The position numbers and the translations under genes are program-made. Shown piece after piece: positions 12,673 to 37,906 of a stretch of DNA of 54,897 bases. The notes below the pieces were generated by a model. That model saw nothing but the letters and a program-made list of their open reading frames with translations, made no database searches and was not told the DNA's origin. The stretch lies in the NCBI GenBank assembly GCA_018240985.1, contig JAFEER010000265.1, forward strand, positions 1 through 54,897. The letters run 5' to 3'. Position 1 is the first letter of the stretch. Each line of letters opens with the position of its first letter. This DNA is from Pseudomonadota bacterium (GTDB taxonomy: Bacteria > Pseudomonadota > Gammaproteobacteria > Burkholderiales > Burkholderiaceae_C).

Positions 12673-12676
12673 GGCG

Positions 12677-15182: not shown

Positions 15183-15208
15183 TTAAGCGCTTGCAGCTAT
15201 TCGGTTTA
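15183..15208 (+). repeat. Dispersed intergenic motif, copy 2
   Basis: TTAAGCGCTTGCAGCTATTC sits in the 56-base gap between the convergent Uma2 and miaB genes. It shares the AAGCGC..GCAGCTAT core with copies at 11741, 19784 and 20003. Confidence 0.5.
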
Positions 15209-15214
15209 TAGCGT

Positions 15215-16546
15215 TCAGGCAAACTCCCGCGCCACCTCGCCGCGCAGCGTGTAGGTGCGCGCCTCGGTGATCTTCACGTCGATCAGCTGGCCGATCAGGC
15301 CCTCCGCGCCGGGGAAGTTGACCACGCGGTTGCACTCGGTGCGGCCCATGAGTTCGTTGCTGTCGCGCTTGCTCACGCCCTCGACGAGGATGCGTTGCAC
15401 CGTGCCCACGCGCTCCTGGCTGATCTCCAGGATGTTGCGGTTGATGACGGCCTGCAACTCCTGCAGGCGGCGCAGCTTGACCTCGTGCGGCGTGTCATCC
15501 TGCAGGTTGGCGGCGGGCGTGCCGGGGCGGGGGCTGAAGATGAAGCTGAAACTGTTGTCGAAGCGCACGTCCGCAATGAGCTTCATCATCTTCTGGAAGT
15601 CTTCTTCCGTTTCGCCGGGAAAGCCGACGATGAAGTCGCTGCTCATGGCCATGTCGGGGCGGATGGCGCGCAGCTTGCGGATCGTGCTCTTGTATTCCAT
15701 AGCGGTGTAGCCGCGCTTCATGGCCATCAGGATGCGGTCTGATCCATGCTGCACCGGCAGGTGCAGGTGGCTGACCAGCTTGGGGATCCTGGCGTAGGCC
15801 TCGATCAGGCGCGGCGTGAACTCGTTCGGGTGGCTGGTGGTGTAGCGGATGCGCTCTATGCCCGGGATCTCGGCCACGTATTCGAGCAGCAGGGCAAAGT
15901 CGGCAGTGTCTTGCGTGTCGCCCATCTTGCCCAGGTAGGCGTTGACGTTCTGGCCCAGTAGCGTCACTTCTTTCACGCCCTGGTCGGCCAGGCCGGCCAC
16001 TTCCACCAGCACGTCCTCGAACGGGCGGCTGACTTCCTCGCCGCGCGTGTAGGGCACGACGCAGTAGCTGCAGTATTTGGAGCAGCCTTCCATGATGGAG
16101 ACGAAGGCGCTGGCGCCCTCGACGCGCGCGGGCGGCAGGTGGTCGAACTTCTCGATCTCGGGGAAGCTGATGTCCACCTGCGGCTTGTGCTGCTTGGCGC
16201 GCGCGTTCAGCAGTTCCGGCAGGCGGTGCAGCGTCTGCGGGCCGAACACCACATCGACGAAGGGCGCGCGCTTGATGATCTCCTCGCCCTCCTGGCTGGC
16301 CACGCAGCCGCCCACGCCGATGAGCACGCCCTTTTCCTTCAGGTGCTTGACGCGGCCGAGGTCGCTAAACACCTTCTCCTGCGCCTTCTCGCGCACCGAG
16401 CAGGTGTTGAAGAGGATCAGGTCGGCCTCTTCGGGGTTGCTGGTTTCAACATAGTCCTGCTCGGCGCCCAGCACGTCGGCCATCTTGGCCGAGTCGTATT
16501 CGTTCATCTGGCAGCCAAAGGTCTTGATGAAGACTTTCTTGCTCAT
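15215..16546 (-). CDS. miaB: tRNA-2-methylthio-N6-dimethylallyladenosine synthase
   Basis: A 443-residue radical-SAM methylthiotransferase that adds the 2-methylthio group at A37 of tRNAs reading UNN codons. The N-terminal UPF0004 domain carries three Cys for one 4Fe-4S cluster ([23 protein letters not shown]). The radical-SAM CxxxCxxC is in [17 protein letters not shown]. The C-terminal TRAM domain binds tRNA. The start at [12 protein letters not shown] is canonical; the frame runs on upstream only through the shadow of the next gene. It follows the small secreted-protein gene by 11 bases and is likely cotranscribed. Confidence 0.97.
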
Positions 16547-16557
16547 GACTCTCACCT

Positions 16558-16965
16558 TCAGCGTGCGGTTTTCGGCTCGTCCCACTGGGAGCGGATATTG
16601 GTCTGCACGGCGTCGCTGCCCTTGCGCGGCTGCCTGGCCTCGTCCTCGGTCAGGATCCAGACGGTGTGCAGCATGCCGGTGCTGGCCTCCAGCACGTAGT
16701 TGACCTTCAATGGCTGGTTGATGAGCGTGTGCGCAAAGACCAGCGCATTGTTGGGGTTGAAGATGCGCAGGCCCGGCGCCAGGCGCACGGTCTGGTTGTT
16801 CAGGCGCGCCTCGGCGCTGTTGGTGATGGTGAGCTGGCCGCGCAGCGCGGCCTCGGGAAAGTTGCGCTGGCCGGCGGGCGTGGGCGCCTGCTGGGCCTGC
16901 GCCGCAAGGGGCAGGGCGATGGCGGCGGCAAGCGCCAGGGCGGGCAGCGAGGGGCAGCGTGTCAT
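16558..16965 (-). CDS. Small predicted periplasmic protein, function unknown
   Basis: A 135-residue protein with a clear Sec signal peptide ([20 protein letters not shown], cleavage likely after AQA near residue 24). The mature part contains [20 protein letters not shown] and [19 protein letters not shown], giving a beta-rich impression and no catalytic motif I can name. It lies directly before miaB on the same strand. Such proteins are common in Comamonadaceae without assigned function; the pairing with miaB may simply be an operon of convenience. Confidence 0.8.
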
Positions 16966-17003
16966 GGTGTATATCCAGGGGCTGTTGATAAGGCCACAAG
17001 AAA

Positions 17004-17036
17004 AAAACCCACAGCGCCGTAGCACTGCGGGTTTTT
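17004..17036 (-). terminator. Terminator after tRNA-Met
   Basis: A stem of AAAAACCC-ACAG with CTGCGGGTTTTT flanks a short loop, A-rich on one side and T-rich on the other, so it can work on either strand. It lies just past the tRNA 3' end and 39 bases before the start of the small secreted-protein gene. Confidence 0.85.
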
Positions 17037-17042
17037 CTTATG

Positions 17043-17119
17043 TGGTGGTGGTACCGGGACTTGAACCTGGGACATCAGCATTATGAATGCTGCGCTCTAA
17101 CCAACTGAGCTATACCACC
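17043..17119 (-). tRNA. tRNA-Met (CAU), elongator type
   Basis: A 77-base tRNA on the minus strand with encoded CCA (plus-strand TGG at 17043-17045). The acceptor stem pairs GGTGGTA with TACCACC, and the D arm contains GCTCAGTTGGTTAGAGC. The anticodon arm CAGCA-TTCATAA-TGCTG gives anticodon CAT, and the T loop is TTCAAGT. The first acceptor pair is fully matched, unlike initiator tRNA. CAU could also be the tRNA-Ile that is lysidine-modified, but the arm sequences resemble elongator Met more closely. Confidence 0.93.
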
Positions 17120-17144
17120 GAAGCCGGCGATTATATGGCAAAAA

Positions 17145-17924
17145 TTACTGGTTCGTGAACACTGCGGCGCGCTTGTTCACGAAGGCGTCCATGCCTTCCT
17201 TCTGATCCTGCGTGGCAAACAGCGCGTGGAACAGGCGGCGCTCGAACATCACGCCGTCGCTCAAAGTGCCCTCGAAGGCGCGGTTCACAGATTCCTTGGC
17301 GGCCATCACGGCGATCTGCGAGAAGCCGCTGATGATGAGGGCGGCGCCCAGGGCTTCTTCCATGAGTTTGTCCAGCGGCACGATGCGGCTGACCAGGCCG
17401 GCGCGCTCGGCCTCCTGCACATCCATCATGCGCGCGGTGAGGGCCAAGTCCATGGCCTTGGACTTGCCCACGGCGCGCGGCAGGCGCTGCGTGCCACCGG
17501 CGCCGGGGATCACGCCGAGCTTGATCTCGGGCTGGCCGAACCTGGCGTTGTCGGCGGCGATGATGAAGTCGCACATCATGGCCAGTTCGCAGCCGCCGCC
17601 CAAGGCAAAGCCGCTCACGGCGGCGATCACGGGCTTGCGGATCGTGCGGATGGTTTCCCAGTTGCGCGTGATGTAGTCGCCCTTGTAGGCGTCGGCAAAG
17701 CTGTATTGGGCCATGGCGCCGATGTCGGCGCCGGCGGCAAAGGCCTTCTCGCTGCCGGTGATGATCATGCAGCCGATCTTCTCATCGGCGTCAAAGGCCT
17801 TGAGCGCCGCGCCCAGCTCGTCCATGAGCTGGCCATTCAGGGCGTTGAGCTGCTTGGGGCGATTGAGCGTGATGACGCCGACTTTCTCGCCTTCGGTGCG
17901 AACGGTGATGCATTCGTAGGTCAC
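17145..17924 (-). CDS. Enoyl-CoA hydratase (crotonase family)
   Basis: A 259-residue crotonase-fold enzyme, normal length for mitochondrial-type enoyl-CoA hydratases. These add water across trans-2-enoyl-CoA in fatty-acid beta-oxidation. The oxyanion-hole segments [10 protein letters not shown] and [15 protein letters not shown] are present. The two catalytic Glu fall in GGCEL and [17 protein letters not shown], so the enzyme should be active as a hydratase. The start is a GTG: AGGAG lies six bases upstream, and no better ATG is present. Substrate chain length cannot be told from sequence. Confidence 0.93.
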
Positions 17925-17973
17925 GGTGATCTCCTGGGTGTTGTGAAGTCAAACCCAGTGACTATAACCAAGC

Positions 17974-19752
17974 TCACACTGCCGCGGCGGGCAGCCCCAG
18001 CCAGCGCTGGGCGATGGCGGCGTCCTTGACGTCCAGGCGCACGGTATCCATCGATGGGCCGGTGCCAGGCAGCGTGAGCGCCAGGTGCAGCAGGCGCCGG
18101 TCGCGTGCGACCAGGGCGACAACTTCGCTCGCGTTGCCGGCGTAGAGCGCCAATTCGTCGAGCTTGTGCAGGCGCCAGGCCTGGCCATCGACCTCGATGC
18201 CCAGCCATTCGTCGCCGGCCATGAAGCCCGCCGCCTCGGCGGCGCCGCCGTGCAGCACGGTCTTGACCTGCACGCCGCCGTTCTCCGCCACGCGCAGGCC
18301 CAGGCGCTGGGCGGTCTGCGCGGGCTCGCTCTGCAGGCTGATGCCGTGGGCTGCGAGCAGCTCGGCCAGCGGCAGCTCCCCGGTGCCGTGCACCCACTCT
18401 GCAATCTCGGCCGACCAGTCGCGGCCAGAGAGCTGCTGCAGCACGGCCAGCACATCGTTTTCTGCCATGGGGCCGCCGGCCTGGCGCTGCCACAACGCGC
18501 GCATCACGTCATCGAGCGTGCTGCGGCCCTCACGGCGCAGCGCCAAGTCCAGGCACAGGGCCACGAGCGCGCCCTTGGTGTAGTAGCTGACGGTGGCGTT
18601 GGGCGTGTTCTCGTCCTGGCGGTAGTACTTGACCCAGGCGTCAAAGCTGGCCTGGGCCACGGACTGCACCTGGCGCCCCGGCGTCTGCAGCATCTGGTTG
18701 ATGGCCTTTGTGAGCAGCCTGAGGTAGCCGGCGTGATCCAGCAGCCCGGCGCGGCGCAGCAGCAGGTCATCGTAGTAGCTGGTGAAGCCCTCGAAGAACC
18801 ACAGCAGCTCGGTGTAGTTCTCGCGCGCGTAGTCGTAGGGCGCAAACTCGGCCGGGCGCAGGCGCTTGACGTTCCAGGTGTGAAAGTACTCGTGGCTGAT
18901 CAGGCCGAGCAGCGTGGTGTAGCCCTCGCTCGACTGCAGCTCCTTCTCGCTCTGGCCCTGGCGCGGCAGGTCGCGGCGGTTGCAGATCAGCGCCGTGCTG
19001 TTGCGGTGCTCCAGGCCGCCGTAGCCGTCGTGCACGGCGTTCAGCATGAAGAGGTAACGGTCGAAGGGCGGGCGCTCTTCGCCATGCCAGAAGCGAATGA
19101 CTTCTTCGCAGATGCGCTGCGCGTCGCGCGCCAGGCGTTCGCCGTCGAAGGAGGGAGCGGCGCCGGCGACGATGAAGCGATGCGGCACGCCGCAGGCGGT
19201 GAATCGCGTGCTCCAGAACTGGCCCAGCTCCACGGGGCAGTCCGCCAGCTCGTCGTAGTCAGCTGCGCGGTAGCTGCCAAAGCCGGCCGCATTCACTTGG
19301 ACGGGCGCAAGGCCCGTGGCCAGCGACCAGTGCGCCAGGGCCGGGGGCTGCACTACCTCCAGGCTGTGCGGCGCGTCTTCCTGGCCCTGCACGCGCAGGC
19401 ACAGGCTGGTGGCGTTGAAGAAGCCACGCGCCGCATCCAGCCAGGCCGTGCGCACCGAATTGTCGTAGGCCGCCACCTCGTAGCTCAGCACCAGCGGCGC
19501 CCCGGCTTGGCAGGCTGCGCGCCAGCGGTGCTTGTCAAGCTGCGTGAGCGCCACCGCGGCGCCGGCCTGTTGGGCGCGCAGCGACTGCAGGTTCTTCGCA
19601 AACTCGCGCACCAGGTAGCTGCCGGGGATCCACACGGGCAGCGACAGCTCCTGCTCCGCCGCCGGCGCGGCCACGGTGAGTGTGACCTGGTACAGGCGGG
19701 CGTGGGTCTGAGAGGGGTCGATGCGGTAGTGGATGGCCTGGGTGATGGTCAT
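17974..19752 (-). CDS. M61-family metallopeptidase with PDZ domain
   Basis: A 592-residue peptidase of family M61 (glycyl aminopeptidase group). The N-terminal beta domain (1-180) precedes the thermolysin-like catalytic domain with HEYFHTWN (H287, E288, H291) and a downstream Glu in the NYTELLWFFEGFTSYYDD segment. A C-terminal PDZ domain (around GGVQVKTVLHGGAAEAAGF) follows. There is no signal peptide, suggesting a cytoplasmic enzyme that removes N-terminal Gly or Ala from peptides. It lies 49 bases before the enoyl-CoA hydratase start on the same strand, but no functional tie is evident. Confidence 0.92.
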   Translation of the reverse strand: MTITQAIHYRIDPSQTHARLYQVTLTVAAPAAEQELSLPVWIPGSYLVREFAKNLQSLRAQQAGAAVALTQLDKHRWRAACQAGAPLVLSYEVAAYDNSVRTAWLDAARGFFNATSLCLRVQGQEDAPHSLEVVQPPALAHWSLATGLAPVQVNAAGFGSYRAADYDELADCPVELGQFWSTRFTACGVPHRFIVAGAAPSFDGERLARDAQRICEEVIRFWHGEERPPFDRYLFMLNAVHDGYGGLEHRNSTALICNRRDLPRQGQSEKELQSSEGYTTLLGLISHEYFHTWNVKRLRPAEFAPYDYARENYTELLWFFEGFTSYYDDLLLRRAGLLDHAGYLRLLTKAINQMLQTPGRQVQSVAQASFDAWVKYYRQDENTPNATVSYYTKGALVALCLDLALRREGRSTLDDVMRALWQRQAGGPMAENDVLAVLQQLSGRDWSAEIAEWVHGTGELPLAELLAAHGISLQSEPAQTAQRLGLRVAENGGVQVKTVLHGGAAEAAGFMAGDEWLGIEVDGQAWRLHKLDELALYAGNASEVVALVARDRRLLHLALTLPGTGPSMDTVRLDVKDAAIAQRWLGLPAAAV

Positions 19753-27161: not shown

Positions 27162-27443
27162 TCACTCCCCCACACCCAGCCGCAACCCTCGCTCCAGCAT
27201 CTGCACCACAGCCAGGTTGATCACCGCAGCACGGCTCTGCCCCAGCTGCCCAGCGAGCTCATCAACCCGCTCCAGCAAGGGCTCGGTGATGGTGAGCGTG
27301 ATTTGCACTTTGCGCCCCTTGCGCACCCTGCGTGGTGCCGGGGGCGTATCTACGCCAGCATCCGGCGCCCCGGCAATAAAAGCGTCAGCCGCCTCGGAAG
27401 CGACAGCTTCGGCAGTTTTGGTTGGTTTCCTTGTAATGGCCAT
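27162..27443 (-). CDS. Ribbon-helix-helix partition partner of ParA
   Basis: A 93-residue protein with a disordered, Ala- and Pro-rich N-terminus (1-40), a basic patch (RRVRKGRK) and a C-terminal ribbon-helix-helix domain (KVQITLTITEPLLERVDEL then SRAAVINLAVVQMLERG). It follows parA by 36 bases on the same strand. Small RHH proteins in this position are the centromere-binding ParB-equivalents (ParG/Omega type) of type Ib partition systems; the basic, flexible N-terminus fits ParG, which stimulates ParA with an arginine-rich tail. Confidence 0.78.
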   Translation of the reverse strand: MAITRKPTKTAEAVASEAADAFIAGAPDAGVDTPPAPRRVRKGRKVQITLTITEPLLERVDELAGQLGQSRAAVINLAVVQMLERGLRLGVGE

Positions 27444-27479
27444 ACAGTAATCAAAGATTGAAATGCAATGTTTTTAATA

Positions 27480-28121
27480 TTAGAACAATGCGTCCAGCAG
27501 TGAATTCAGCTCTGCGATCGCCTTGTCGTCTCTGGGCTTGGCCTCCAGCACGCACAGGCCAGCGCCCGCAGCGTTGGCAAAGGCCTTGCGGCGGCGCAGT
27601 GGGGTCGGCAGGTACTCAAACTGCGGCACTTCGGCCACGGCAGCCGCCGCCTCGGCGTTGTCGCTGGAATGCTCGCCAGGGTCGGCGCAGTTGAGTACGG
27701 CAAAGGCGCGCAGGCCGTCGCGCACGCTGCGGGCCTCATCCACCAGGGCTGCGATGTCACTCAGCGCCCACACGTCATAGCTGCGAGGCTGGAACGGCAC
27801 CAGCAGCACGTCTGACAAGACCAGCGCCGCACGCAAGGCGGTTGAATCCCGTCCGCCAGCGTCAATCACCACGTCATCAAATTTGGCAGCCTGCTGCTGC
27901 ACCTGGGCGCGCAAGGTGGGGCCATCCGGGTAGGTAGCGCAGGCGATGCCTGGCGCGTGCCCCGCTGCCGCGCGAATACTGATGGCTGTTTGGGCTGTGC
28001 CCTGGCGGTCGCCATCAATCAGCCACACGTCACGGCCTGCAAGGGCTCGGGCGATGGCTAGGTTCACGGCCAGTGTCGTCTTGCCTACCCCGCCTTTGGT
28101 GTTCCCAATGGTGATGATCAT
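27480..28121 (-). CDS. parA: ParA-family partition ATPase (type Ib)
   Basis: A 213-residue deviant-Walker ATPase. KGGVGKTT at residues 9-16 carries the signature Lys of ParA/MinD proteins, DGDRQGTA is the A' region, and VVIDAGGRDS the Walker B. It lacks the N-terminal helix-turn-helix of larger ParA proteins, so it is the short type Ib class and its RHH partner should do the DNA binding. It moves plasmid copies apart by patterning on the nucleoid. It is read divergently from the RM operon; an AT-rich inverted repeat precedes it. Confidence 0.92.
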   Translation of the reverse strand: MIITIGNTKGGVGKTTLAVNLAIARALAGRDVWLIDGDRQGTAQTAISIRAAAGHAPGIACATYPDGPTLRAQVQQQAAKFDDVVIDAGGRDSTALRAALVLSDVLLVPFQPRSYDVWALSDIAALVDEARSVRDGLRAFAVLNCADPGEHSSDNAEAAAAVAEVPQFEYLPTPLRRRKAFANAAGAGLCVLEAKPRDDKAIAELNSLLDALF

Positions 28122-28298: not shown

Positions 28299-28496
28299 AT
28301 GTCGCTTCTCAAGGACGAAACCCTCTCCATCCGCACCTCTTCTGAGATCAAGCAATTGGTGCGCCTGGCTGCTGAGCGCGAGCGGCGCTCGGTCTCTTCC
28401 ATGATCGAAATCCTGGTGTTGGACTACGCCCGCCAGCACAAGCTTCAGCCCGCTTCCACGGCAACGGCAAAAACGAAAAAAACCGCCAAGCAATGA
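28299..28496 (+). CDS. Small Arc/RHH-like protein leading the RM operon
   Basis: A 65-residue protein. LSIRTSSEIKQLVRLAAERE and RSVSSMIEILVLDYARQHKL give the strand-helix-helix of an Arc/MetJ-type ribbon-helix-helix domain, followed by a Lys/Thr-rich tail. Its stop overlaps the hsdM1 start in ATGA, making it the first gene of the coupled RM operon. A regulator that times expression of the restriction genes is the natural guess; it could also belong to a toxin-antitoxin type family, but no toxin is next to it. The open frame extends 35 codons upstream without similarity. Confidence 0.75.
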   Translation: MSLLKDETLSIRTSSEIKQLVRLAAERERRSVSSMIEILVLDYARQHKLQPASTATAKTKKTAKQ

Positions 28497-29995
28497 ACGA
28501 CCCGTTGCCCCATATCACCCCTGCCCAACTCGAAAGCCATCTCTGGGAATCCGCCAACATCCTGCGCGGCCCGGTGGATGCGGCCGACTTCAAGACCTAT
28601 ATCTTTCCGCTGCTGTTCTTCAAGCGCATCTGCGATGTCTGGGATGAGGAATACCAGGAAATCGTCGATGAAACCGGCGACGAGCAACTGGCCTGCTTCC
28701 CTGAGTCGCACCGTTTTCAGATACCGCAGGACTGCCACTGGAACGACGTGCGCGCCAAGGCGGCCAACATCGGCGCGGCCCTGCACCACGCCATGCGCGG
28801 CATTGAGCAGGCCAACCCCGACACCCTGTACGGTGTCTTCGGCGATGCGCAGTGGTCGAACAAAGAGCGCCTGTCAGACGCCTTGCTCAAGGACTTGATC
28901 GAGCACTTCTCGCGCATCTCCTTTGGCAACCAAGACATCGCCTCGGATGTGTTGGGCGATGCCTACGAATACCTGATCAAGAAGTTTGCCGACGCCACCA
29001 ACAAGAAGGCCGGTGAGTTCTACACCCCACGCAGCGTGGTGCGGCTGATGATCGACATGCTCGACCCCAAAGAAGGGCAGACCATCTACGACCCTGCTTG
29101 CGGCACCGGCGGCATGTTGCTTGCTGCCGTGCAGCACGTGCATGAACAGCATGGCGATGTCAAACGCCTGTGGGGCAAGCTCTATGGGCAGGAGAAGAAC
29201 CTCACCACCTCGTCCATCGCCCGCATGAACCTGTTTCTACACGGTATTGAGGACTTTCAAATCGTGCGTGGCGACACCTTGCGCAACCCGGCATTTTTCG
29301 ACGGTGACCGCCTGGCCAGCTTCGACTGCGTAATCGCCAACCCGCCGTTCTCGCTTGAAAAGTGGGGCGAAGAACTGTGGGTCAACGACCCCTTTGGTCG
29401 CAACTTTGCCGGCCTGCCACCTTCCTCCAGTGGAGATTTCGCCTGGGTGCAGCACATGGTCAAGTCGATGGCCGACGGTACGGGCCGCATGGCCGTGGTG
29501 CTGCCCCAGGGGGCGTTGTTTCGCAAGGGTGCAGAAGGCAGCATCCGCCAAAAATTGCTGGAGCTCGATCTGGTGGATGCCGTTATCGGCCTGGCCCCCA
29601 ATCTGTTCTATGGCACTGGCCTGGCCGCCTGCATTCTGGTGCTGCGCAAGCACAAACCCGCCGCGCACAAAAACAAGGTGTTGATCGCTGATGCGTCGCG
29701 CCTGTTCAAAAAAGGCCGCGCGCAAAACTTCCTGGAGCCAGAGCATGCCGCCAGCATCCTGGGCTGGTATCGCGGCTTTGCCGATGTGCAAGACGCCGTG
29801 CGCGTGGTCAGCCTGGGCGACATCCAGGCCGAGGACTGGACGCTCAACATCTCGCGCTACGTGCTGCCCCCATTGCAAGAAGACATACCGCCCCTGCCCG
29901 ATGCCATCGCCGCCTTCAAGGATGCGCTGGCGCGCTGCCGCGAGGCGGAAGAACGCCTGGCCCAGGTGATGACCGAAGGAGGCTGGCTGCAATGA
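28493..29995 (+). CDS. hsdM: Type I restriction-modification methyltransferase subunit, HsdM copy 1
   Basis: A 500-residue N6-adenine methyltransferase subunit. HsdM_N helical domain (1-130, with FPLLFFKRICDVWDEEY), then the methylase domain with SAM motif DPACGTGG at 200-207 and catalytic NPPF at 283-286. KKAGEFYTPRSVVRLM is the usual segment before motif I. It overlaps the preceding RHH gene and the next gene by ATGA junctions. It should pair with HsdS to methylate adenines in the target. All active-site motifs are intact, so it is not a dead copy despite the second hsdM directly behind it. Confidence 0.95.
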   Translation: MNDPLPHITPAQLESHLWESANILRGPVDAADFKTYIFPLLFFKRICDVWDEEYQEIVDETGDEQLACFPESHRFQIPQDCHWNDVRAKAANIGAALHHAMRGIEQANPDTLYGVFGDAQWSNKERLSDALLKDLIEHFSRISFGNQDIASDVLGDAYEYLIKKFADATNKKAGEFYTPRSVVRLMIDMLDPKEGQTIYDPACGTGGMLLAAVQHVHEQHGDVKRLWGKLYGQEKNLTTSSIARMNLFLHGIEDFQIVRGDTLRNPAFFDGDRLASFDCVIANPPFSLEKWGEELWVNDPFGRNFAGLPPSSSGDFAWVQHMVKSMADGTGRMAVVLPQGALFRKGAEGSIRQKLLELDLVDAVIGLAPNLFYGTGLAACILVLRKHKPAAHKNKVLIADASRLFKKGRAQNFLEPEHAASILGWYRGFADVQDAVRVVSLGDIQAEDWTLNISRYVLPPLQEDIPPLPDAIAAFKDALARCREAEERLAQVMTEGGWLQ

Positions 29996-31533
29996 GCGAC
30001 ACGAGCAAAAACACCACCCCAAAACGCATCAGCCAGCAAGAGCTCGAAAGCTACCTTTGGGGCGCCGCCGTGCTGCTGCGCGGCCTGATCGACGCGGGCG
30101 ACTACAAGCAGTTCATCTTTCCCCTGCTGTTCTACAAACGCGTCTCCGACGTGTGGGACGAGGAATACCAGGCCGCGCTGGCCGAGTCCGATGGTGATCT
30201 GTCTTACGCCGAGTTTGCCGAAAACCACCGCTTCCAAATCCCGGCTGAAGCGCAGTGGCAAGCCGTGCGCCAGGCGCCCAAGAACGTCGGCGCCGCCATC
30301 CAGAAAGCCATGCGCGCCATCGAGGCGGCCAACCCCGACATGCTCGACGGCATCTTTGGCGATGCCCCCTGGACGAACGGCGAGCGCCTGCCCGATGCCA
30401 CGCTGAAAAACCTCATCGAGCATTTCTCCACCCGCACGCTGTCGGTCGCCAACGTGCCCGAGGACGAACTGGGCAACGCCTACGAATACCTGATCAAGAA
30501 GTTTGCCGACGACTCTGGCCACACCGCCGCCGAGTTTTACACCAACCGCACCGTGGTGCATTTGATGACCCAACTGCTGGCACCCAAGGCGGGCGAATCC
30601 ATCTACGACCCCACCTGCGGCACGGGCGGCATGTTGATCTCGGCGCTGGACGAAGTAAAGCGCTCAGGGGGCGAGTACCGCACGCTCAAACTCTACGGGC
30701 AAGAGCGCAACCTCATCACCTCCAGCATCGCCCGCATGAATTTGTTTCTGCACGGCGTGGAAGACTTCGAGATCATCCGGGGCGACACGCTGGCCCACCC
30801 CAGGCACATCGAAGGCGACCGCCTGCGCCAGTTCGATGTCATCCTGGCCAACCCGCCATACTCCATCAAGCAGTGGGATCGCGAGGCCTGGAGCAGCGAC
30901 AAATGGGGGCGCAACTTTCTCGGCACGCCGCCACAGGGCCGTGCCGACTACGCCTTTCAGCAGCACATCCTCACCAGCCTCACGGCCAAGGGCCGCAGCG
31001 CCGCCCTGTGGCCGCACGGCGTGCTGTTTCGCAACGAAGAGCAGTCCATGCGCGCCAAGATGGTGGAGCAGGACTGGGTGGAAGCCATCATCGGCCTGGG
31101 GCCCAACCTGTTCTACAACTCGCCCATGGAGTCCTGCATCGTCGTCTGCAACCGCCACAAGGCGGCAGCACGCAAGGGTAAGGTGATCTTCATCGACGCG
31201 GTGAATGAAGTCACCCGCGAGCGGGCGCAAAGCTTTTTGAAGCCTGAGCACCAGCAGCGCATCCTGTCCGCGTACAAGGCTTTTGCCGATGTGCCCGGTT
31301 TCGCCAAGGTCGCCACCCTGGCGGAAATCGGCGCCAATGCGGACAACCTCTCGATCCCGCTGTACGTGAAGCGCATTGCCGCCGCCATCGCCACCGACAG
31401 CAATGGTGACGCGGTATCGCTGCGCTCTGCCTGGGAGCAATGGCAAACCGATGGCCGCACGTTCTGGCAACAGATGGATGTTTTGATCGAAACGCTGGAT
31501 GGCCTCGCCGTGCAGGAGAAACCCGATGCGTAG
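29992..31533 (+). CDS. hsdM: Type I restriction-modification methyltransferase subunit, HsdM copy 2
   Basis: A 513-residue HsdM clearly related to copy 1 along its whole length but well diverged: FPLLFYKRVSDVWDEEY, TAAEFYTNRTVVHLM, DPTCGTGG at 206-213 and NPPY at 287-290. The NPPY versus NPPF difference and changed surroundings make a recent duplication unlikely. Both copies keep their catalytic residues. With one hsdS and one hsdR in the operon, the two might form a mixed M1M2S complex or serve different recognition halves; this is inference. ATGA overlap at its start and an 8-base overlap with the next gene show tight coupling. Confidence 0.95.
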   Translation: MSDTSKNTTPKRISQQELESYLWGAAVLLRGLIDAGDYKQFIFPLLFYKRVSDVWDEEYQAALAESDGDLSYAEFAENHRFQIPAEAQWQAVRQAPKNVGAAIQKAMRAIEAANPDMLDGIFGDAPWTNGERLPDATLKNLIEHFSTRTLSVANVPEDELGNAYEYLIKKFADDSGHTAAEFYTNRTVVHLMTQLLAPKAGESIYDPTCGTGGMLISALDEVKRSGGEYRTLKLYGQERNLITSSIARMNLFLHGVEDFEIIRGDTLAHPRHIEGDRLRQFDVILANPPYSIKQWDREAWSSDKWGRNFLGTPPQGRADYAFQQHILTSLTAKGRSAALWPHGVLFRNEEQSMRAKMVEQDWVEAIIGLGPNLFYNSPMESCIVVCNRHKAAARKGKVIFIDAVNEVTRERAQSFLKPEHQQRILSAYKAFADVPGFAKVATLAEIGANADNLSIPLYVKRIAAAIATDSNGDAVSLRSAWEQWQTDGRTFWQQMDVLIETLDGLAVQEKPDA

Positions 31534-33418
31534 TGCCTTGGAGCTGTTCGAGGAGCTCAATGCGGTGGATGAGTCCACCCGCATCGAAGCCAAGCGCGCC
31601 AGTGAGCTGGGCAAGTCCGTCATGCAGACGGTGATCGCATTTGCCAACGAGCCCGGGCTGAATGGTGGCTACCTGCTGCTCGGCGCAGACTGGTCCATCA
31701 ATGACAAGGGCGATACGGTATACCGGCCCGCCGGACTGCCCGACCCGGACAAGGTGCAGCGGGACTTGGCCTCGCAATGTGCCAGCATGCTCAGCGTCAC
31801 GCTGCGGCCGGAGATGCAACTGGAAACGGTCGATGGGCATACCGTGCTGGTGGTCTATGTGCCCGAGGCCGATGTCACCCACAAGCCCGTTTACCTCAAG
31901 GCCACCGGCCTACCTCGTGGCGCGTATCGGCGCATTGGCAGCACTGACCAGCACTGCGTAGACGAAGACCTCTGGGTGCTGCGCGGCGAAAGCCAACCCA
32001 GCCATGGCCCCGACACCAGCGTGCTGCCTGATGCACGGCTTGACGACTTTGACCCCGCTGCGATTGCAGCCTATCGCCGCGACCGTGGCCGCATCAACCC
32101 TCAGGCGGAAGAGCTCGCCTACGGTGACGACGACATGCTTGAGGCCCTGGGCGCCTTACGTCGCGTCGATGGGGCGCTGCGTCCCACCTTGGCCGGGATC
32201 GTGCTGTTTGGCAAGCCGCTAGCCCTGCGGCGGCTCTTGCCCATGGTCCTTATCGACTACATCCGCGTGCCCGGTAACGAATGGGTGGAAGACCCAGACA
32301 ACCGCTTCCAGTCCATCGACATCCGCAAACCCCTGCTGCTGGCCTTGCCTCAGGCCGAGGCCAGCATCATCGATGAGCTGCCCAAAGGTTTCCGTTTGCC
32401 CGAAGGGCAGCTGCAAAGCGTGCAAGAGCCTATCCTGCCGCGCAAGGTCATCCGCGAGGCCCTGGCCAATGCGGCCATGCACCGCAGCTATACCGTCCAC
32501 AGCCCCACGCAGATCATCCGCTTCAGCAACCGCATCGAAGTGCGCAATGTGGGCTACTCGCTCAAGGCCCCCGAGCAACTGGGCTCACCGGGCTCACGCC
32601 TGCGCAACCCGGTGATTGCGGCGGTGTTGCACGACCTGCATCTGGCCGAAGCCAAGGGGACCGGCATTCGCGCTATGCGTCGCCTCGCGGCAGAAGCCGG
32701 GCTCACCGCCCCCGAGTTCCATTCCGACCGGCAGGCCAACGAGTTCAAGCTCACGCTCTTCCTGCACAACCTGCTGACCGAGGACGACCATGCCTGGCTG
32801 CGCGGTTTTGCGGGAGGGGCGGTGAGCGGTGACGAAGCCAAGGCGCTGATCTACGCAAGGGAGACCGGCGCCGTGGACAACAGCGCTTGTCGTGACTTCT
32901 GTGGCCTCGATACACTGGCTGCCAGCCACTTGCTGCGCCGCCTGCGCGATCGGGGACTGCTGGACAAAGAAGGCTCCGGCAGCGGCACCTATTACGTGCT
33001 GGCCCAAGCCGACGCCGCCCCCCCAGAGCCGCCAGCCCAGCTCGCGCTGGACATCGAAACAGAGCCCTCGCCGGAGGCCTCTGGGACGGAGGTGCCCTCG
33101 CCTGACACCAATTCCAATACACCAGCATGCAACCCAGAGCTTGCAACCTTGCCGCCAGAGCTTGCAACCTTGCTTGCAACCCTGAAGGGCCGCACTCAAG
33201 AGGATGATCTGCGCCAGGCCATCGTTCGCCTGTGCGCTTGGGCTCCACTCACGGTAGACCAACTTGCAACCTTGCTGGGCAAGAGCCGCGACTACCTGCG
33301 CAACAAGCACCTGATTCCCATGGTAGGCAGCGGTCGGCTGCGCTTTCGCTACCCGGAAAGCGCCAAACACCCCCATCAGGCCTATGTGGCACCCTTGGAC
33401 AGTACGACAAAGCCATGA
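31526..33418 (+). CDS. Schlafen/AlbA_2-type putative ATP-binding regulator inside the RM operon
   Basis: A 630-residue protein. Residues about 10-140 form an AlbA_2 (Schlafen-like, divergent AAA-4) nucleic-acid-binding domain (EAKRASELGKSVMQTVIAFAN). A RecG-C/HATPase_c_4-like region is at about 280-420 (IREALANAAMHRSY, EAKGTGIRAMRRLA), then winged-helix segments. A Pro/Glu-rich linker (about 500-560), in which LATLPPELATL-type motifs repeat, precedes a C-terminal helical domain. The ATG at 31526 has AGGAG seven bases upstream. It overlaps hsdM2 and overlaps hsdS in ATGA, so it is an integral operon member. AlbA_2 proteins occur in other type I RM loci; their task there is unknown to me. Confidence 0.83.
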   Translation: MRSALELFEELNAVDESTRIEAKRASELGKSVMQTVIAFANEPGLNGGYLLLGADWSINDKGDTVYRPAGLPDPDKVQRDLASQCASMLSVTLRPEMQLETVDGHTVLVVYVPEADVTHKPVYLKATGLPRGAYRRIGSTDQHCVDEDLWVLRGESQPSHGPDTSVLPDARLDDFDPAAIAAYRRDRGRINPQAEELAYGDDDMLEALGALRRVDGALRPTLAGIVLFGKPLALRRLLPMVLIDYIRVPGNEWVEDPDNRFQSIDIRKPLLLALPQAEASIIDELPKGFRLPEGQLQSVQEPILPRKVIREALANAAMHRSYTVHSPTQIIRFSNRIEVRNVGYSLKAPEQLGSPGSRLRNPVIAAVLHDLHLAEAKGTGIRAMRRLAAEAGLTAPEFHSDRQANEFKLTLFLHNLLTEDDHAWLRGFAGGAVSGDEAKALIYARETGAVDNSACRDFCGLDTLAASHLLRRLRDRGLLDKEGSGSGTYYVLAQADAAPPEPPAQLALDIETEPSPEASGTEVPSPDTNSNTPACNPELATLPPELATLLATLKGRTQEDDLRQAIVRLCAWAPLTVDQLATLLGKSRDYLRNKHLIPMVGSGRLRFRYPESAKHPHQAYVAPLDSTTKP

Positions 33419-34578
33419 CTAACAAGACCTTGAAGCCCGGTTGGCGGCGCGTGAAGTTCGGCGACGTGGTGCGCCTCTCGAAAGCCCGCAGCCAAGACCC
33501 GCTGGCCGATGGCATTGAACGCTACGTCGGCCTGGAACACCTCGAACCCGGCGACTTGCGCATCCGCAGTTGGGGCAACGTCGCCGACGGCGTGACCTTT
33601 ACCAGCGTGTTTCAACCCGGGCAGATGCTGTTCGGCAAGCGACGCGCTTACCAGCGCAAGGTGGCGGTGGCGGATTTCTCTGGCGTGTGTTCCGGGGACA
33701 TCTACGTGTTGGAGACCAAGGACGCGCAGGTTTTGCTGCCGGAGCTGCTGCCCTTCATTTGCCAGACCGACGCCTTTTTCGGTCATGCAGTGGGTACGTC
33801 GGCGGGATCGTTGAGCCCGCGTACCAATTGGACGAGTTTGGCGGGGTTTGAGTTTGCGCTGCCGCCGATGGAAGAACAGACAACACTTGTTGACCTTTTT
33901 CAAGGACTTGAGCTAACCAGCGAAGCGCACCAAAGAGTGGGAGCCGTAGCCGACCAGCTTGTTCGATCATTATTTTCAGACGTACTAAATCGGAAATGGC
34001 CTGTTGTCGAACTTGGCGCAGTTGTTCAGGAGACGCAATACGGACTTTCAATCAACGCAGGGTCGGACGGGCAATATCCGATACTTCGGATGATGAATAT
34101 TGAAGATGGGCTATGCGTCGAAAATGACATCAAGTATGTGGATCTCGGCGATAAAGATTTCGAGGCATATCGACTCATCCATGGCGATGTGCTTTTTAAT
34201 CGCACCAACAGCTATGAATTAGTGGGCAGAACAGGTGTTTACGATCTCAATGGTGATCACGTATTCGCTTCGTACCTGGTGCGAATCAAGACAAACACGG
34301 AAAAACTAGAGCCAAAGTTCCTGGCGTTTTACCTGAACTCTGATTTTGGACGCCGACAGGTGCTCGCTTATGCAACCAAAGCCGTGAGTCAGGCAAACGT
34401 GAACGCCAGTAATTTGCTTCGTGTCCGTCTGCCGCTGCCACCGCTGGATGTACAACAACAGTTGCTGGATGAGATCGCTGAAGTGAAATCGGCGGAAAAG
34501 GTAGCGTTGGAGCGCCGCATCTCTTCAGAGGAGATGAAGAAGCAGTTGTTCGCAAAGATCACGGGTGACGCCAGATGA
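33415..34578 (+). CDS. hsdS: Type I restriction-modification specificity subunit
   Basis: A 387-residue HsdS. Two target-recognition domains (about 5-165 and 185-350) are each followed by a conserved helical spacer. The proximal one begins LPPMEEQTTLVDLFQ and the distal one LPLPPLDVQQQLLDEI, the expected repeat that sets half-site spacing. Each recognition domain reads one half of a bipartite DNA target. The second half is noticeably more AT-rich than the first, which fits domain exchange by recombination. The start at MTNKTLKPGW overlaps the previous stop in ATGA, and hsdR follows by another ATGA. Confidence 0.93.
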   Translation: MTNKTLKPGWRRVKFGDVVRLSKARSQDPLADGIERYVGLEHLEPGDLRIRSWGNVADGVTFTSVFQPGQMLFGKRRAYQRKVAVADFSGVCSGDIYVLETKDAQVLLPELLPFICQTDAFFGHAVGTSAGSLSPRTNWTSLAGFEFALPPMEEQTTLVDLFQGLELTSEAHQRVGAVADQLVRSLFSDVLNRKWPVVELGAVVQETQYGLSINAGSDGQYPILRMMNIEDGLCVENDIKYVDLGDKDFEAYRLIHGDVLFNRTNSYELVGRTGVYDLNGDHVFASYLVRIKTNTEKLEPKFLAFYLNSDFGRRQVLAYATKAVSQANVNASNLLRVRLPLPPLDVQQQLLDEIAEVKSAEKVALERRISSEEMKKQLFAKITGDAR

Positions 34579-37500
34579 GTTCTTTCAACGAATCCAATAC
34601 CGTCGAAGCCTATGTCCGCGATCTGCTCGCCGGCCCGGTCAAGGCCGCCCCGGCCAATACCGTCCAAGAACCTCAAGCCAGTTACGGCCCCAGCCCCAAG
34701 GGCATCGGCTGGCGCCACAAAGCCCCAGCCGAGGTGCCGCGCCAGCTGCAGGAAGTGCTGGTGGAGCCCTGGCTGCGCGAGGCGCTGATCCGCCTGAACC
34801 CCGAAATTGCCGCTGACCCCGACCGCGCCGACGAGGTGCTTTACAAGCTGCGCGCCATCGTGCTGTCGGTGCGCTCGGATGGGTTGATCCGCGCCAACGA
34901 AGAATTCACCGCCTGGATGCGTGGCGAGCGTTCCATGCCCTTTGGCCCCAACCATGAGCATGTGCCGGTGCGGCTGATCGACCTGGATGACCCGGCGCAA
35001 AACCACTACATCGTCACCCAGCAGTACACCTACCGCGCTGGCCCCACCGAGCGCCGCGCCGACCTGGTGCTGTTGGTCAACGGTCTGCCCGTCGTGCTGA
35101 TCGAGGCCAAGACGCCGGTGAAGAAATGCATCAGCTGGGTGGATGGCGCGGTGCAGGTGCATGACGACTACGAAAAGTTCGTGCCCGAGCTGTTTGTCTG
35201 CAATGTGTTCTCAGTCGCCACCGAGGGCAAGGCGTTTCGCTTTGGCTCCATTGGCCTGCCGGTGAAAGACTGGGGGCCGTGGCATCTGGAGGACGAAGGT
35301 GCTGCGCCCGCGCAGGGCCAGCACCATGCGCTGAAGTCGCTCAAACTGTCCGCCGAGAGCATGTTGCGCCCGCCCGTGGTGCTGGACATTTTGAGCAATT
35401 TCACCCTGTTTGCCACCAACAAGAAAAAGCAGCGTATCAAGATCATTTGCCGCTACCAGCAGTTTGAAGCGGCCAACAAGATCGTCGAGCGCGTGCTGGC
35501 GGGCTACCCCAAGAAGGGCTTGATCTGGCATTTTCAGGGTTCGGGCAAGTCGCTGCTGATGGTGTTTGCCGCGCAGAAGCTGCGTATGCACGCCGGGCTG
35601 AAGAACCCCACGGTGCTGATCGTGGTCGATCGCATTGACCTGGACAGCCAGATCACCGGCACCTTTACCGGCGCGGACATCCCCAATCTGGAAAAGGCCG
35701 ACAGCCGCGAGAAGCTGCAGCAACTGCTGGCCCAGGATGTGCGCAAGATCATCATCACCACCATCTTCAAGTTTGGCGAGGCCACGAGTGCGCTGAACGA
35801 GCGCAGCAACATCATCGCCCTGGTGGACGAGGCCCACCGCACCCAGGAAGGCGACCTGGGCCGCAAGATGCGCGAGGCCCTGCCCAATGCGTTTTTGTTT
35901 GGCCTGACGGGCACGCCCATCAACCGCGCCGACCGCAATACCTTTTATGCCTTTGGTGCCGATGAAGACTTGGCCAGTGGCCGGGGTTACCTGAGCCGCT
36001 ATGGTTTTGAGGAGTCCATCCGCGACGGCGCCACGCTGCAACTGCACTTTGAGCCGCGACTGATTGACCTGCACATCGACAAGGCGGCGCTGGATGCCGC
36101 GTACAAGGATTTGACCGGCGGCCTGTCTGACCTGGACAAGGACAACCTGGCCAAGACCGCCGCCAAGATGGCGGTGCTGGTGAAGACGCCCGAGCGCATT
36201 CGCAAGATTTGCGAAGACATCGTGCAGCACTACCAGGCCAAGGTGGAGCCCAACGGCTTCAAGGGCCAGATCGTCACCTTCGACCGCGAATCCTGCCTGC
36301 TGTTCAAGGCCGAGCTGGACAAGCTGCTGCCGCCCGAGGCCAGCGACATCGTGATGTCGGTGCAGGCGGCGGACAAAAAGGAGCACCCGGAGTACGCGCC
36401 CTACGACCGCAGCCGCGAGGAGGAAGAGCGCTTGCTGGATCGCTTTCGTGATCCGGCCGATCCGCTTAAGCTCATCATCGTTACGGCCAAGCTGCTGACG
36501 GGCTTTGATGCGCCGATTCTGCAGGTCATGTATCTGGACAAGCCGCTGCGCGACCACACGCTGCTGCAAGCCATCTGCCGGGTGAATCGCACCTATTCTG
36601 AGCAAAAGACCCACGGCCTGATCGTGGACTACCTGGGCATCTTCGACGACGTGGCCGCCGCGCTGGAGTTCGACGACCAGAGCGTGAAACAGGTGGTGAG
36701 CAACATCCAGGAGCTGAAGGACAAGCTGCCCGAGGCGATGCAGAAATGCCTGGCCTTCTTCCCCGGCATCGACCGCAGCGTGCAGGGCTATGAGGGCCTG
36801 ATTGCCGCCCAGCAATGTCTGCCCAATAACGAGGTGCGCGACAACTTTGCGGCCGAATACAGCATTCTCAACAAAATCTGGGAAGCGCTGTCGCCCGATG
36901 CGGTGCTGACGCCCTTTGAGACCGACTACCGCTGGCTGTCGCAGGTGTACCAGTCGGTGCAGCCCTCCAGCGGCCACGGCAAGCTGCTGTGGCATTCGCT
37001 GGGCGCCAAGACCATCGAGCTGATCCACCAGAACGTGCATGTGAACGCCGTGCGCGATGACCTCGACACCCTGGTGCTGGATGCTGACCTGCTGGAGGCG
37101 GTGCTCTCCAACCCAGACCCGAAGAAGGCCAAGGAGATCGAGATCAAGCTCCAACGCCGTCTGCGCGGCAAGGCGGGCAAGCCCAAATTCAAGCAGCTTT
37201 CAGAACGGCTGGATGCGCTGAAGGATCGTTTTGAATCCGGCCAGATCAACAGCGTGGAGTTCTTGAAGCAGCTGCTGCAAATCGCCAAGGAAACCCTGCA
37301 GGCCGAAAAGGAAGTGCCGCCCGAAGAGGACGAGGATCGCGGCAAGGCAGCGCTGACCGAGCTGTTCAACGAAATCAAGACCACCGACACCCCGGTGGTG
37401 GTGGAGCGCGTGGTGGCGGACATTGACGAGATCGTGCGCCTGGTGCGCTTTCCCGGTTGGCAGGGGACACAGGCCGGTGAGCGGGAGGTGAAGAAAGCCC

Positions 37501-37586
37501 TGCGCAAAGCGCTCTTCAAATACAAGCTGCACGCGGATGAAGAGCTGTTTGAGAAGGCGTTCAGCTATATCCGGCAGTATTACTGA
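34575..37586 (+). CDS. hsdR: Type I restriction endonuclease subunit
   Basis: A 1003-residue motor-nuclease. The N-terminal PD-(D/E)xK domain has the active-site segment LIEAKTP (E177, K179) after an acidic Asp in RRADLVLLVNG. The two RecA-like translocase domains follow, with Walker A GSGKS at 322-326, DEAH at 418-421, GLTGTPINRADR, and the later motif LLTGFDAPILQVMYLDKPL. A C-terminal helical domain contacts the methylase. Foreign DNA lacking the adenine methylation is pumped and cut. Catalytic residues are intact. The last seven bases overlap the convergent XRE gene. Confidence 0.96.
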   Translation: MSSFNESNTVEAYVRDLLAGPVKAAPANTVQEPQASYGPSPKGIGWRHKAPAEVPRQLQEVLVEPWLREALIRLNPEIAADPDRADEVLYKLRAIVLSVRSDGLIRANEEFTAWMRGERSMPFGPNHEHVPVRLIDLDDPAQNHYIVTQQYTYRAGPTERRADLVLLVNGLPVVLIEAKTPVKKCISWVDGAVQVHDDYEKFVPELFVCNVFSVATEGKAFRFGSIGLPVKDWGPWHLEDEGAAPAQGQHHALKSLKLSAESMLRPPVVLDILSNFTLFATNKKKQRIKIICRYQQFEAANKIVERVLAGYPKKGLIWHFQGSGKSLLMVFAAQKLRMHAGLKNPTVLIVVDRIDLDSQITGTFTGADIPNLEKADSREKLQQLLAQDVRKIIITTIFKFGEATSALNERSNIIALVDEAHRTQEGDLGRKMREALPNAFLFGLTGTPINRADRNTFYAFGADEDLASGRGYLSRYGFEESIRDGATLQLHFEPRLIDLHIDKAALDAAYKDLTGGLSDLDKDNLAKTAAKMAVLVKTPERIRKICEDIVQHYQAKVEPNGFKGQIVTFDRESCLLFKAELDKLLPPEASDIVMSVQAADKKEHPEYAPYDRSREEEERLLDRFRDPADPLKLIIVTAKLLTGFDAPILQVMYLDKPLRDHTLLQAICRVNRTYSEQKTHGLIVDYLGIFDDVAAALEFDDQSVKQVVSNIQELKDKLPEAMQKCLAFFPGIDRSVQGYEGLIAAQQCLPNNEVRDNFAAEYSILNKIWEALSPDAVLTPFETDYRWLSQVYQSVQPSSGHGKLLWHSLGAKTIELIHQNVHVNAVRDDLDTLVLDADLLEAVLSNPDPKKAKEIEIKLQRRLRGKAGKPKFKQLSERLDALKDRFESGQINSVEFLKQLLQIAKETLQAEKEVPPEEDEDRGKAALTELFNEIKTTDTPVVVERVVADIDEIVRLVRFPGWQGTQAGEREVKKALRKALFKYKLHADEELFEKAFSYIRQYY

Positions 37587-37870
37587 GACGCGGCGCCAGC
37601 GGCTGTAGGCGGGGCCTGATCAGGCAGAAGGGGGGCGCTGCTGTCCAGCTCCCGCACAAAGTCCGCCAGCTCATAGCCCAGCGCCTTGAGCCAGATGCGC
37701 AGCTCGATCACGTCCAGCCTACGCACTCCAGTCTCGCACTTGCTCACGTCCGCCTGCGTCCACGCCAGGCGGCGCGCCAGCTCCACCTGGCTGACTTGGG
37801 CATCTGTGCGTTTGGCACGCAGCAGGGCAAGCATCTGCTGGTATTCACGGGTGTAGAGGGTCTTGTACAT
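37580..37870 (-). CDS. XRE-family regulator convergent with hsdR
   Basis: A 96-residue helix-turn-helix protein. VSQVELARRLAWTQADVSKCETGVRRLDVIELRIWLKAL is the XRE domain (residues 25-70), followed by a Pro/Ala-rich tail. The ATG at 37870 is preferred over a TTG two codons upstream. Its 3' end overlaps the end of hsdR on the opposite strand, so transcription through it would produce antisense RNA to hsdR. A 21-bp near-palindrome at 37907 is a candidate site for autoregulation. A controller role for the RM system is possible but not proven. Confidence 0.85.
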   Translation of the reverse strand: MYKTLYTREYQQMLALLRAKRTDAQVSQVELARRLAWTQADVSKCETGVRRLDVIELRIWLKALGYELADFVRELDSSAPLLPDQAPPTAAGAASQ

Positions 37871-37906
37871 GGGCAACTCGGCCCATGAGGTTGCATGCGA
37901 TCATTG

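What the first reader, a model, noticed from the sequence alone, without database searches (positions are those of the whole stretch)
28299..37586. Type I RM operon with two intact, diverged HsdM genes and an embedded Schlafen/AlbA_2 protein
Six genes (RHH, hsdM1, hsdM2, AlbA_2-type, hsdS, hsdR) are chained by overlaps at every junction, so they are translated as one unit. Both HsdM proteins keep the SAM and NPP(F/Y) motifs but differ throughout, while there is only one HsdS and one HsdR. Classical systems use M2S with identical M subunits. A heteromeric M1M2S enzyme, or one methylase devoted to another job, plus a nucleic-acid-binding AlbA_2 partner, would be a distinct architecture. That AlbA_2 genes occur in some RM loci is established; the combination here being functional is inference.
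Basis: partly seen in the sequence, partly recalled or inferred. Interest (0 to 1): 0.8.

Follow-up and report, generated by a model that had tools for sequence, protein, structure and literature searches.

The report
Two-methylase type I restriction operon
This is a bacterial DNA-restriction operon of an already described kind, in which two different methylases are expected to mark adenine on one DNA strand and cytosine on the other, and it carries an extra gene that is probably an exchangeable anti-phage module.

Summary
Six + strand genes (28299-37586) overlap by 4-8 nt at each junction. HsdM1 and HsdM2 are intact and 52% identical, with one HsdS and one HsdR. The heteromeric M1M2S reading is probably right, but not new. 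The closest solved proteins are the M1 and M2 subunits of PacII, a non-canonical type I enzyme that makes m6A (M1, NPPF/AGEF) and m4C (M2, NPPY/AAEF). Window M1 pairs with PacII M1 and window M2 with PacII M2, by score, motif and tree. Of 80 genome loci found with M2, 78 show M1; the other two meet a contig end near M2.

The AlbA_2 protein is not part of this core. Of 72 loci with M2 and S both found, 37 have no insert between them and 35 do: 14 AlbA_2 (one a fragment), 11 HigB/PD-Lambda-2-like pairs, 8 Gabija gajAB. Proteins of its Schlafen plus ATPase layout are published as backup effectors of BREX loci. I read it as an embedded, separable defence effector. That function, and the m4C/m6A chemistry here, are inferred. 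Verdict: new member of a known kind. My searches of a partial library listed no report of this particular pairing.

The parts
28299..28496 (+). 65-aa small protein, first gene of the operon; possible regulator ('RHH' not confirmed)
   Evidence: ORF; no family match; homologues upstream of M1 in 5 of 80 genome loci
28493..29995 (+). HsdM1, m6A-type modification subunit (AGEF, NPPF), 500 aa
   Evidence: best solved relative PacII M1 (7vru_A) 601 bits vs PacII M2 461 bits; M1 clade
29992..31533 (+). HsdM2, predicted m4C-type modification subunit (AAEF, NPPY, Arg29 equivalent), 513 aa
   Evidence: best solved relative PacII M2 (7vru_B) 612 bits vs PacII M1 438 bits; M2 clade; residues
31526..33418 (+). 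Schlafen AlbA_2 + GHKL-type ATPase (HATPase_c_4) protein, 630 aa; embedded cargo, probable defence effector
   Evidence: first 147 residues match solved structure 2kyy; invariant E16, E21 and ATPase residues
33415..34578 (+). HsdS, 387 aa; N half related to PacII TRD1 (GKRRAYQRK), C half a separate TRD2
34575..37586 (+). HsdR, restriction/translocation subunit, 1003 aa
   Evidence: TIGR00348 508 bits, over its cut-off

Best explanation
Core: a non-canonical type I RM system of the PacII kind. M1 and M2 are paralogues that assemble with one HsdS as M1M2S, and with HsdR as the restriction complex. M2 sits by the N-terminal TRD and methylates cytosine (m4C); M1 sits by the C-terminal TRD and methylates adenine (m6A) on the other strand. 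Shown here: gene content, pairing, motifs, phylogeny. Inferred from PacII: assembly and chemistry. AlbA_2 gene: a separable Schlafen-GHKL cargo module lodged by overlapping start/stop codons at the M2|S junction, so it is probably co-expressed with the RM genes. It most likely acts as a second-line effector, an RNA-cleaving Schlafen gated by ATP, against phages that evade or inhibit restriction. Its position as interchangeable cargo is shown; the effector role is inferred.
For: Reciprocal best PDB hits to PacII M1 and M2. Tree of 209 proteins: 95 M1 and 95 M2 rows, each one side of a branch (SH-aLRT 93 and 100), PacII M1 and M2 on the matching sides. In 94 M1/M2 pairs (92 distinct): NPPF 94/94 in M1, NPPY 94/94 in M2, AGE[FY] 94/94, A[AQ]EF 94/94, M2 Arg29 94/94. 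M1 upstream of M2 in 78 of 80 genome loci and beside 17 of 19 M2 places in a survey of 399 genomes of the order that overlaps the 80. HsdS N half shares the PacII DNA-contact motif. Cargo at M2|S: an insert in 35 of 72 loci with M2 and S, by AlbA_2, GajAB, HigB/PD-Lambda-2-like and others. Schlafen + minimal histidine kinase + wHTH proteins are described as backup effectors in BREX loci (PMC12839542, passages). E16/E21 invariant in 15/15, with the spacing of SLFN13 E205/E210.
Against: No methylome or complex data. The third Schlafen carboxylate is D or E in 13 of 15 only. The AlphaFold model of the AlbA_2 protein is unusable (pLDDT 60, pTM 0.27), so the C-terminal wHTH is not confirmed. The arginine that Zhu et al. 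report in M2 'but not M1' is present in both here (M1: 87 of 94, window included). Two PacII M2 DNA contacts, K15 and D19, are Q and S in the window. PacII TRD1 base contact H94 is Asp in the window, so the half-site need not be CCC. Two M2 places lack M1 (G543, G584), and in L086 about 710 nt upstream of M2 hold no M1.
Confidence: 0.78

Rival explanations
1. The AlbA_2 protein is a regulator rather than an effector: its ATPase and C-terminal region tune transcription or assembly of the RM genes.
For: 12 of the 15 relatives listed in the plasmid search (87 records matched) are annotated as RNA-binding, DNA-binding or helix-turn-helix proteins; invariant ATP-site residues; translational overlap with S.
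Against: 37 of 72 loci with M2 and S have no insert there, and others carry matches to known defence modules instead, so the RM core does not need it; relatives exist away from M1M2 genes.
Confidence: 0.2
2. The AlbA_2 protein is a structural subunit of a distinct M1M2-AlbA_2-S-R enzyme.
For: Overlapping genes inside the operon; recurrent at the same junction in 16 of 80 loci.
Against: Absent from many loci whose R is over 90% identical to the window's; PacII MTase works as M1M2S without it (PMC9613975).
Confidence: 0.07
3. M1 and M2 do not form a heterodimer; they make separate M1-M1-S and M2-M2-S enzymes that share one HsdS.
For: Both keep the catalytic motifs; M2 without M1 occurs at two places.
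Against: PacII is a solved M1M2S heterotrimer, in which M2 alone did not bind S (PMC9613975); M1 and M2 found together in 78 of 80 loci; HsdS halves differ sharply in conservation.
Confidence: 0.05

Closest known systems
PacII non-canonical m6A/m4C type I RM system (Pseudomonas alcaligenes NEB585; 7VRU/7VS4; PMC9613975, parts 1-4 of 6 read)
   Same: M1 (NPPF/AGEF) + M2 (NPPY/AAEF) + S + R; 56% identical M1, 57% identical M2; related S with the same TRD1 contact motif
   Different: Window operon has an upstream small gene and an embedded AlbA_2 gene (I did not see the PacII locus itself); M1 has Arg at the M2-Arg29 place; TRD1 H94 contact is Asp; TRD2 differs
Schlafen + minimal histidine kinase + wHTH effectors of BREX loci (PMC12839542, passages seen)
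   Same: Schlafen AlbA_2 domain followed by a GHKL-type ATPase, encoded inside a modification-based defence operon
   Different: Here inside an M1M2 type I operon; wHTH not confirmed; no direct comparison with those proteins was made
RRDM island: RptR-type I RM with embedded DarTG2 (PMC12255303, abstract and passages seen)
   Same: Small first gene, type I RM genes, and a separate defence module embedded between hsd genes
   Different: One HsdM listed, cargo between S and R, RptR is an alpha-helical 79-aa protein
PrrC in the EcoprrI locus (PMC12707154, passages seen)
   Same: Would be an embedded RNA-cleaving guard of a type I enzyme
   Different: No PrrC family among the matches of the window protein; sensing of RM inhibition not tested

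Membership tests
Non-canonical m6A/m4C type I RM (PacII kind) | Two different M genes with one S and one R | tested here: met
Non-canonical m6A/m4C type I RM (PacII kind) | M1 with NPPF and AGEF motifs | tested here: met
   window sequence
Non-canonical m6A/m4C type I RM (PacII kind) | M2 with NPPY and AAEF motifs and Arg29 | tested here: met
Non-canonical m6A/m4C type I RM (PacII kind) | M1 and M2 orthologous to PacII M1 and M2 | tested here: met
Non-canonical m6A/m4C type I RM (PacII kind) | Reported trait, not a definition: Arg29 equivalent absent from M1 | tested here: not met
   M1 has Arg in 87 of 94, window included. Zhu et al. also find this Arg in about 80% of classical M subunits, so it does not define the class
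Non-canonical m6A/m4C type I RM (PacII kind) | m6A on one strand and m4C on the other | not testable with these tools
   needs a methylome
Non-canonical m6A/m4C type I RM (PacII kind) | M1M2S heterotrimer | not testable with these tools
   needs purification; no complex prediction offered
Schlafen-GHKL-wHTH effector | SLFN AlbA_2 domain followed by GHKL-type ATPase | tested here: met
   SLFN_AlbA_2 and HATPase_c_4; E311, N315, G378, G380 in 15/15; calling these the ATP-site residues is recall of the GHKL fold
Schlafen-GHKL-wHTH effector | C-terminal winged helix | tested here: inconclusive
   no Pfam match; model of low confidence
Schlafen-GHKL-wHTH effector | Three-carboxylate RNase site | tested here: inconclusive
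   E16 and E21 15/15; third position D 11, E 2, N 1, A 1; equivalence to SLFN13 residues is by motif only
Schlafen-GHKL-wHTH effector | RNase activity and phage defence | not testable with these tools
   bench test needed
Defence module embedded in a type I RM operon | Cargo gene between hsd genes, replaced by other defence modules or absent in relatives | tested here: met
   that the AlbA_2 gene itself is a defence module is inferred
PrrC-like guard | Held off by the RM enzyme and released when it is inhibited | not testable with these tools
   no data

The most novel reading that the evidence does not exclude
In m4C/m6A type I operons the M2|S junction (and, less often, M1|M2) is a cargo bay, kept open by overlapping start/stop codons. 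Whole defence modules (Schlafen-GHKL, Gabija, PD-Lambda-2-like, and short pAgo with TIR in M1|M2) are swapped there while staying under RM expression. The Schlafen-GHKL protein is a guard that is unleashed when the M1M2S enzyme is inhibited by DNA mimics such as Ocr or ArdA.
Probability: 0.2. Interest if true: 0.6.

Novelty: new member of a known kind. Interest (0 to 1): 0.3.

Why it matters
The survey finds the class in several phyla with a deep M1/M2 split, which sits poorly with the published view that it evolved recently. It also gives a concrete lead for the Schlafen gene: it shares a junction with modules that match known defence systems, so it can be tested as one.

Tried and rejected
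Natural M1-M2 fusion in L107 (Dechloromonas SSB2): rejected. The single reading frame has 40 ambiguous bases and is likely a sequence-quality effect.

AlphaFold model of the AlbA_2 protein from 15 sequences: pLDDT 60, pTM 0.27. Not interpreted; no fold search was run.

TRD exclusivity: I expected the N-terminal TRD family never to occur in C halves. That is not so. A TRD1 profile gives over 50 bits for 4 of 96 C halves (L040, L119, L254, L154), weaker matches to 34 more, and 100.6 bits for one half of a canonical HsdS (L203), with weaker matches to 7 more of the 36 canonical halves. Only the difference in conservation is claimed.

PrrC-like anticodon nuclease as the identity of the cargo: no such family among the matches; kept only as an analogy.

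Arg29 as a discriminator of M2 from M1: fails outside PacII.

Regulator 'RHH': not confirmed by the three libraries tried.

Mirror-tree correlation of M1 and M2 identities (r = 0.97, 4371 pairs) is not used as proof of contact; shared inheritance alone would give it.

A check showed that L086 has about 710 nt upstream of M2 without M1 (and a transposase-like ORF, by my reading, at the contig end), so the count is now 78 of 80.

Full report
What is there. Pfam identifies HsdM_N + N6_Mtase in both M proteins, SLFN_AlbA_2 + HATPase_c_4 in the fourth gene, Methylase_S in the C half of HsdS, and HSDR_N + SWI2_SNF2 in HsdR. NCBIfam places HsdR over its cut-off (TIGR00348, 508 bits). M1 and M2 are 52% identical over 463 aligned positions. 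The 65-aa first gene matches none of three libraries, so the RHH label is unconfirmed; it is conserved directly upstream of M1 in 5 of 80 genome loci. The own genome has 13 N6_Mtase matches (some are pieces of one gene); outside the window its closest match to M1 is 48-49% identical, in two pieces of one 541-aa frame.

The two methylases are a known pair. Against all PDB sequences, window M1 scores 601 bits with PacII M1 (7vru_A) and 461 with PacII M2; window M2 scores 612 with PacII M2 (7vru_B) and 438 with PacII M1. Zhu et al. 2022 (PMC9613975; parts 1-4 of 6 read) describe PacII as a non-canonical type I enzyme. It is an M1M2S heterotrimer in which M1 (AGEF, NPPF) makes m6A and M2 (AAEF, NPPY) makes m4C. 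They credit the class to an earlier paper; I recall this as Morgan et al., NAR 2016, and the DOI I tried is not held. Window M1 has AGEF and NPPF, and window M2 has AAEF and NPPY. In 94 loci with full M1 and M2 (window included, L107 dropped for poor sequence; 92 distinct pairs), NPPF is 94/94 in M1, NPPY 94/94 in M2, and M2 Arg29, Asp33, Lys38, His175, Phe180, Ser289, Arg346, Phe373 and Ser376 are each 94/94. Two PacII M2 DNA contacts are not kept (K15 is Q and D19 is S in the window), and the M2-only Arg29 is not M2-only here: M1 has Arg in 87 of 94.

Distribution. A scan of one genome for each of 84,980 species with an M2 alignment found 461 relatives and returned the best 80. M2 motifs in that set are partly selected for; the neighbours are not. 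M1, whole or in part, lies upstream of M2 in 77 of 80. In L107 M1 is in the same reading frame, in a poor sequence. L054 and L086 meet a contig end about 230 and 710 nt upstream of M2, with no M1 seen. A second survey covered 399 genomes of the order at E <= 1e-140, with at most three candidates scored in most genomes. It gave 19 M2 places in 18 genomes: 17 have M1 on the same strand nearby (one cut short), two (G543, G584) do not. Two more genomes (G061, G413) matched by M1, at a contig end. Plasmids of Streptomyces hirsutus and Exiguobacterium aurantiacum have the plain M1-M2-S-R order; M1-M2-S-R loci also occur in bins named Chloroflexota (L125) and in Geobacteraceae (L120-L122). A tree of 209 proteins (quick method, LG+G4) puts all 95 M1 on one side of a branch (SH-aLRT 93), all 95 M2 on one side of another (100), and 19 other HsdM outside both; PacII M1 and M2 fall with their kind. 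Some long branches (PacII, L040) are flagged as unsure by the program. The split is deep, with window M1 only 51% identical to the Exiguobacterium M1, which does not sit easily with the published suggestion of a recent origin; transfer between phyla could still be recent.

HsdS is lopsided. In 83 M1/M2 loci (1500 random pairs of loci), the N-terminal TRD keeps a median identity of 47-53% where M2 identity is 40-85%, and 84% above that; the C-terminal TRD stays at 23-25% throughout. These HsdS were picked by similarity to the window HsdS (over 90 bits), which could favour conserved N halves; but none of the loci L050-L158 with an HsdR lacked such an HsdS. In a control of 14 HsdS beside canonical single HsdM genes (91 pairs), both halves are at 24-27%. 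Those 14 come from 28 fetched loci, of which 18 had a candidate ORF; L190, L198, L200 and L204 were dropped. Eight of the 14 were confirmed as Methylase_S by Pfam and six were not scanned. Domain borders are approximate. The N half carries the PacII DNA-contact motif GKRRAYQRK or a close form in 64 of 96. In PacII this TRD1 serves the cytosine half and M2. The asymmetry fits an enzyme whose two ends face different methylases. I recall that the 2016 abstract already noted the similarity of the cytosine-recognising parts, so I do not claim it as new. It is not absolute: TRD1-like C halves exist.

The AlbA_2 gene is cargo. Among the 80 genome loci, M2 and S were both found in 72; the other 8 are cut off or, in L084, have no detected S. 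In 37 of the 72 there is no gap of 150 nt or more between M2 and S, and in 35 there is: AlbA_2 in 14 (L123 a fragment), HigB-like + PD-Lambda-2_B-like pair in 11, Gabija GajA+GajB in 8, a PDC-S28-like helicase in 1, unclassified in 2 (one locus, L115, has two kinds) (families named from single representatives, the rest assigned by BLAST). Two further loci have AlbA_2 after M2 (L098, L109). A gap of 150 nt or more between M1 and M2 is seen in 17 of 77 loci; contents include a GIY-YIG protein, an OLD-like protein, and a TIR-APAZ + short pAgo pair (L118). In L042 the Gabija genes are themselves chained by 4-nt overlaps to M2 and S. The closest relative of the window operon by M1 (95%; small gene 88%) is in Comamonas testosteroni NFYY023 (L084, also seen as L260): it has HigB, a PD-Lambda-2_B-like gene, an 86-aa AlbA_2 remnant, and gajAB after M2, and no detected S or R. 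In 399 genomes of the order, AlbA_2 relatives at E <= 1e-60 occur in 4. Two (the window and G485) are beside M2, and two (G539, G560) have no M1, M2, S or R match within the 18-19 kb fetched. In G539 it is overlapped by a DruE-like gene, in a locus with DrmD- and type IIG-like genes.

What the AlbA_2 protein probably does. Its first 147 residues match the solved structure 2kyy (E 8e-78). [quoted passage not shown] Passages of PMC5862951 give Glu205 and Glu210 as essential in SLFN13, with Asp248 as the third carboxylate. In 15 AlbA_2 proteins of this family (window plus the 14 longest), E16 and E21 (same spacing of five) are invariant, and the third place is D in 11, E in 2, N in 1, A in 1; E311, N315, G378 and G380, which I take as ATP-site residues, are invariant. 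The equivalence is by motif, not by structure. An RNase effector gated by ATP is the best guess; a regulator is the main rival.

Known versus new. The M1M2S core is known. Embedding of defence genes in type I loci is known: PMC12255303 (abstract and passages seen) shows DarTG2 between hsdS and hsdR and calls the site a possible hotspot. Schlafen-kinase proteins as accessory effectors are known in BREX. I saw no description of M1M2SR with this Schlafen gene in the listings of my searches, of which I opened six papers, five of them only in part or in passages and one not held. That library lacks most subscription journals and preprints, so this says little.

Noticed in passing
L254 (G543:C1:624000-640000) 5884-11472; L255 (G584:C152) 4923-6383: M2-type methylase without M1. 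L254 is M2-S-R with no M1 match in the 5.9 kb upstream, and its HsdS has a cytosine-type N TRD and a C half that also matches the TRD1 profile (59.8 bits): a possible m4C-only type I enzyme. L255 ends at the contig edge after M2.
   Followed up: partly
L260 (G334:C1:756000-772000), same locus as L084: Stack of cargo after M2 (HigB, PD-Lambda-2_B-like, AlbA_2 remnant, gajAB), no S or R detected, and a filamentous-phage G2P-like gene nearby: a rearranged relative of the window operon.
   Followed up: partly
L251 (G539:C42) 1-18001: AlbA_2-HATPase gene 75% identical to the window's over the matched stretch, chained by overlap to a 2383-aa DruE-like gene, in a locus with DrmD-like helicase and type IIG/DrmMI-like methylase.
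   Followed up: partly
L140, L143, L157, L158 (viral contigs), S|R junction: Tyrosine integrase matches at the S|R junction (4 of 21 uncut S|R junctions of the viral-contig set), with an extra Methylase_S fragment in L140: likely recombination-switched specificity in M1M2 systems.
   Followed up: no
L139 11608-12816; L136 10839-12989: Shedu SduA-like gene and a PDC-S46-like gene embedded between S and R.
   Followed up: no
L118 6053-8988: TIR-APAZ plus short prokaryotic Argonaute pair embedded between hsdM1 and hsdM2.
   Followed up: no
L190 1461-2873: A locus with a canonical HsdM also carries an AlbA_2 + HATPase_c_4 gene about 1.3 kb beyond hsdM on the same strand.
   Followed up: no
window 27162-28121 (- strand): CopG-family gene and ParA-like ATPase just upstream of the operon; a 213-aa ORF stands at the same place in L260 (sequences not compared). 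Suggests a mobile-element or plasmid-partition neighbourhood.
   Followed up: no
window 37580-37876 (- strand): HTH gene whose 3' end overlaps the 3' end of hsdR by 7 nt, tail to tail.
   Followed up: no
L052 6691-8225; L110 8003-9492; L114 (= L253): M1 or other hsd genes split into two frames in some relatives, by mutation or by sequence error, so part of the 80 loci may be inactive.
   Followed up: no
L086 1-710: No M1 in about 710 nt upstream of M2 up to the contig end; the end holds an ORF that reads like a transposase, so M1 may be interrupted or lost.
   Followed up: no
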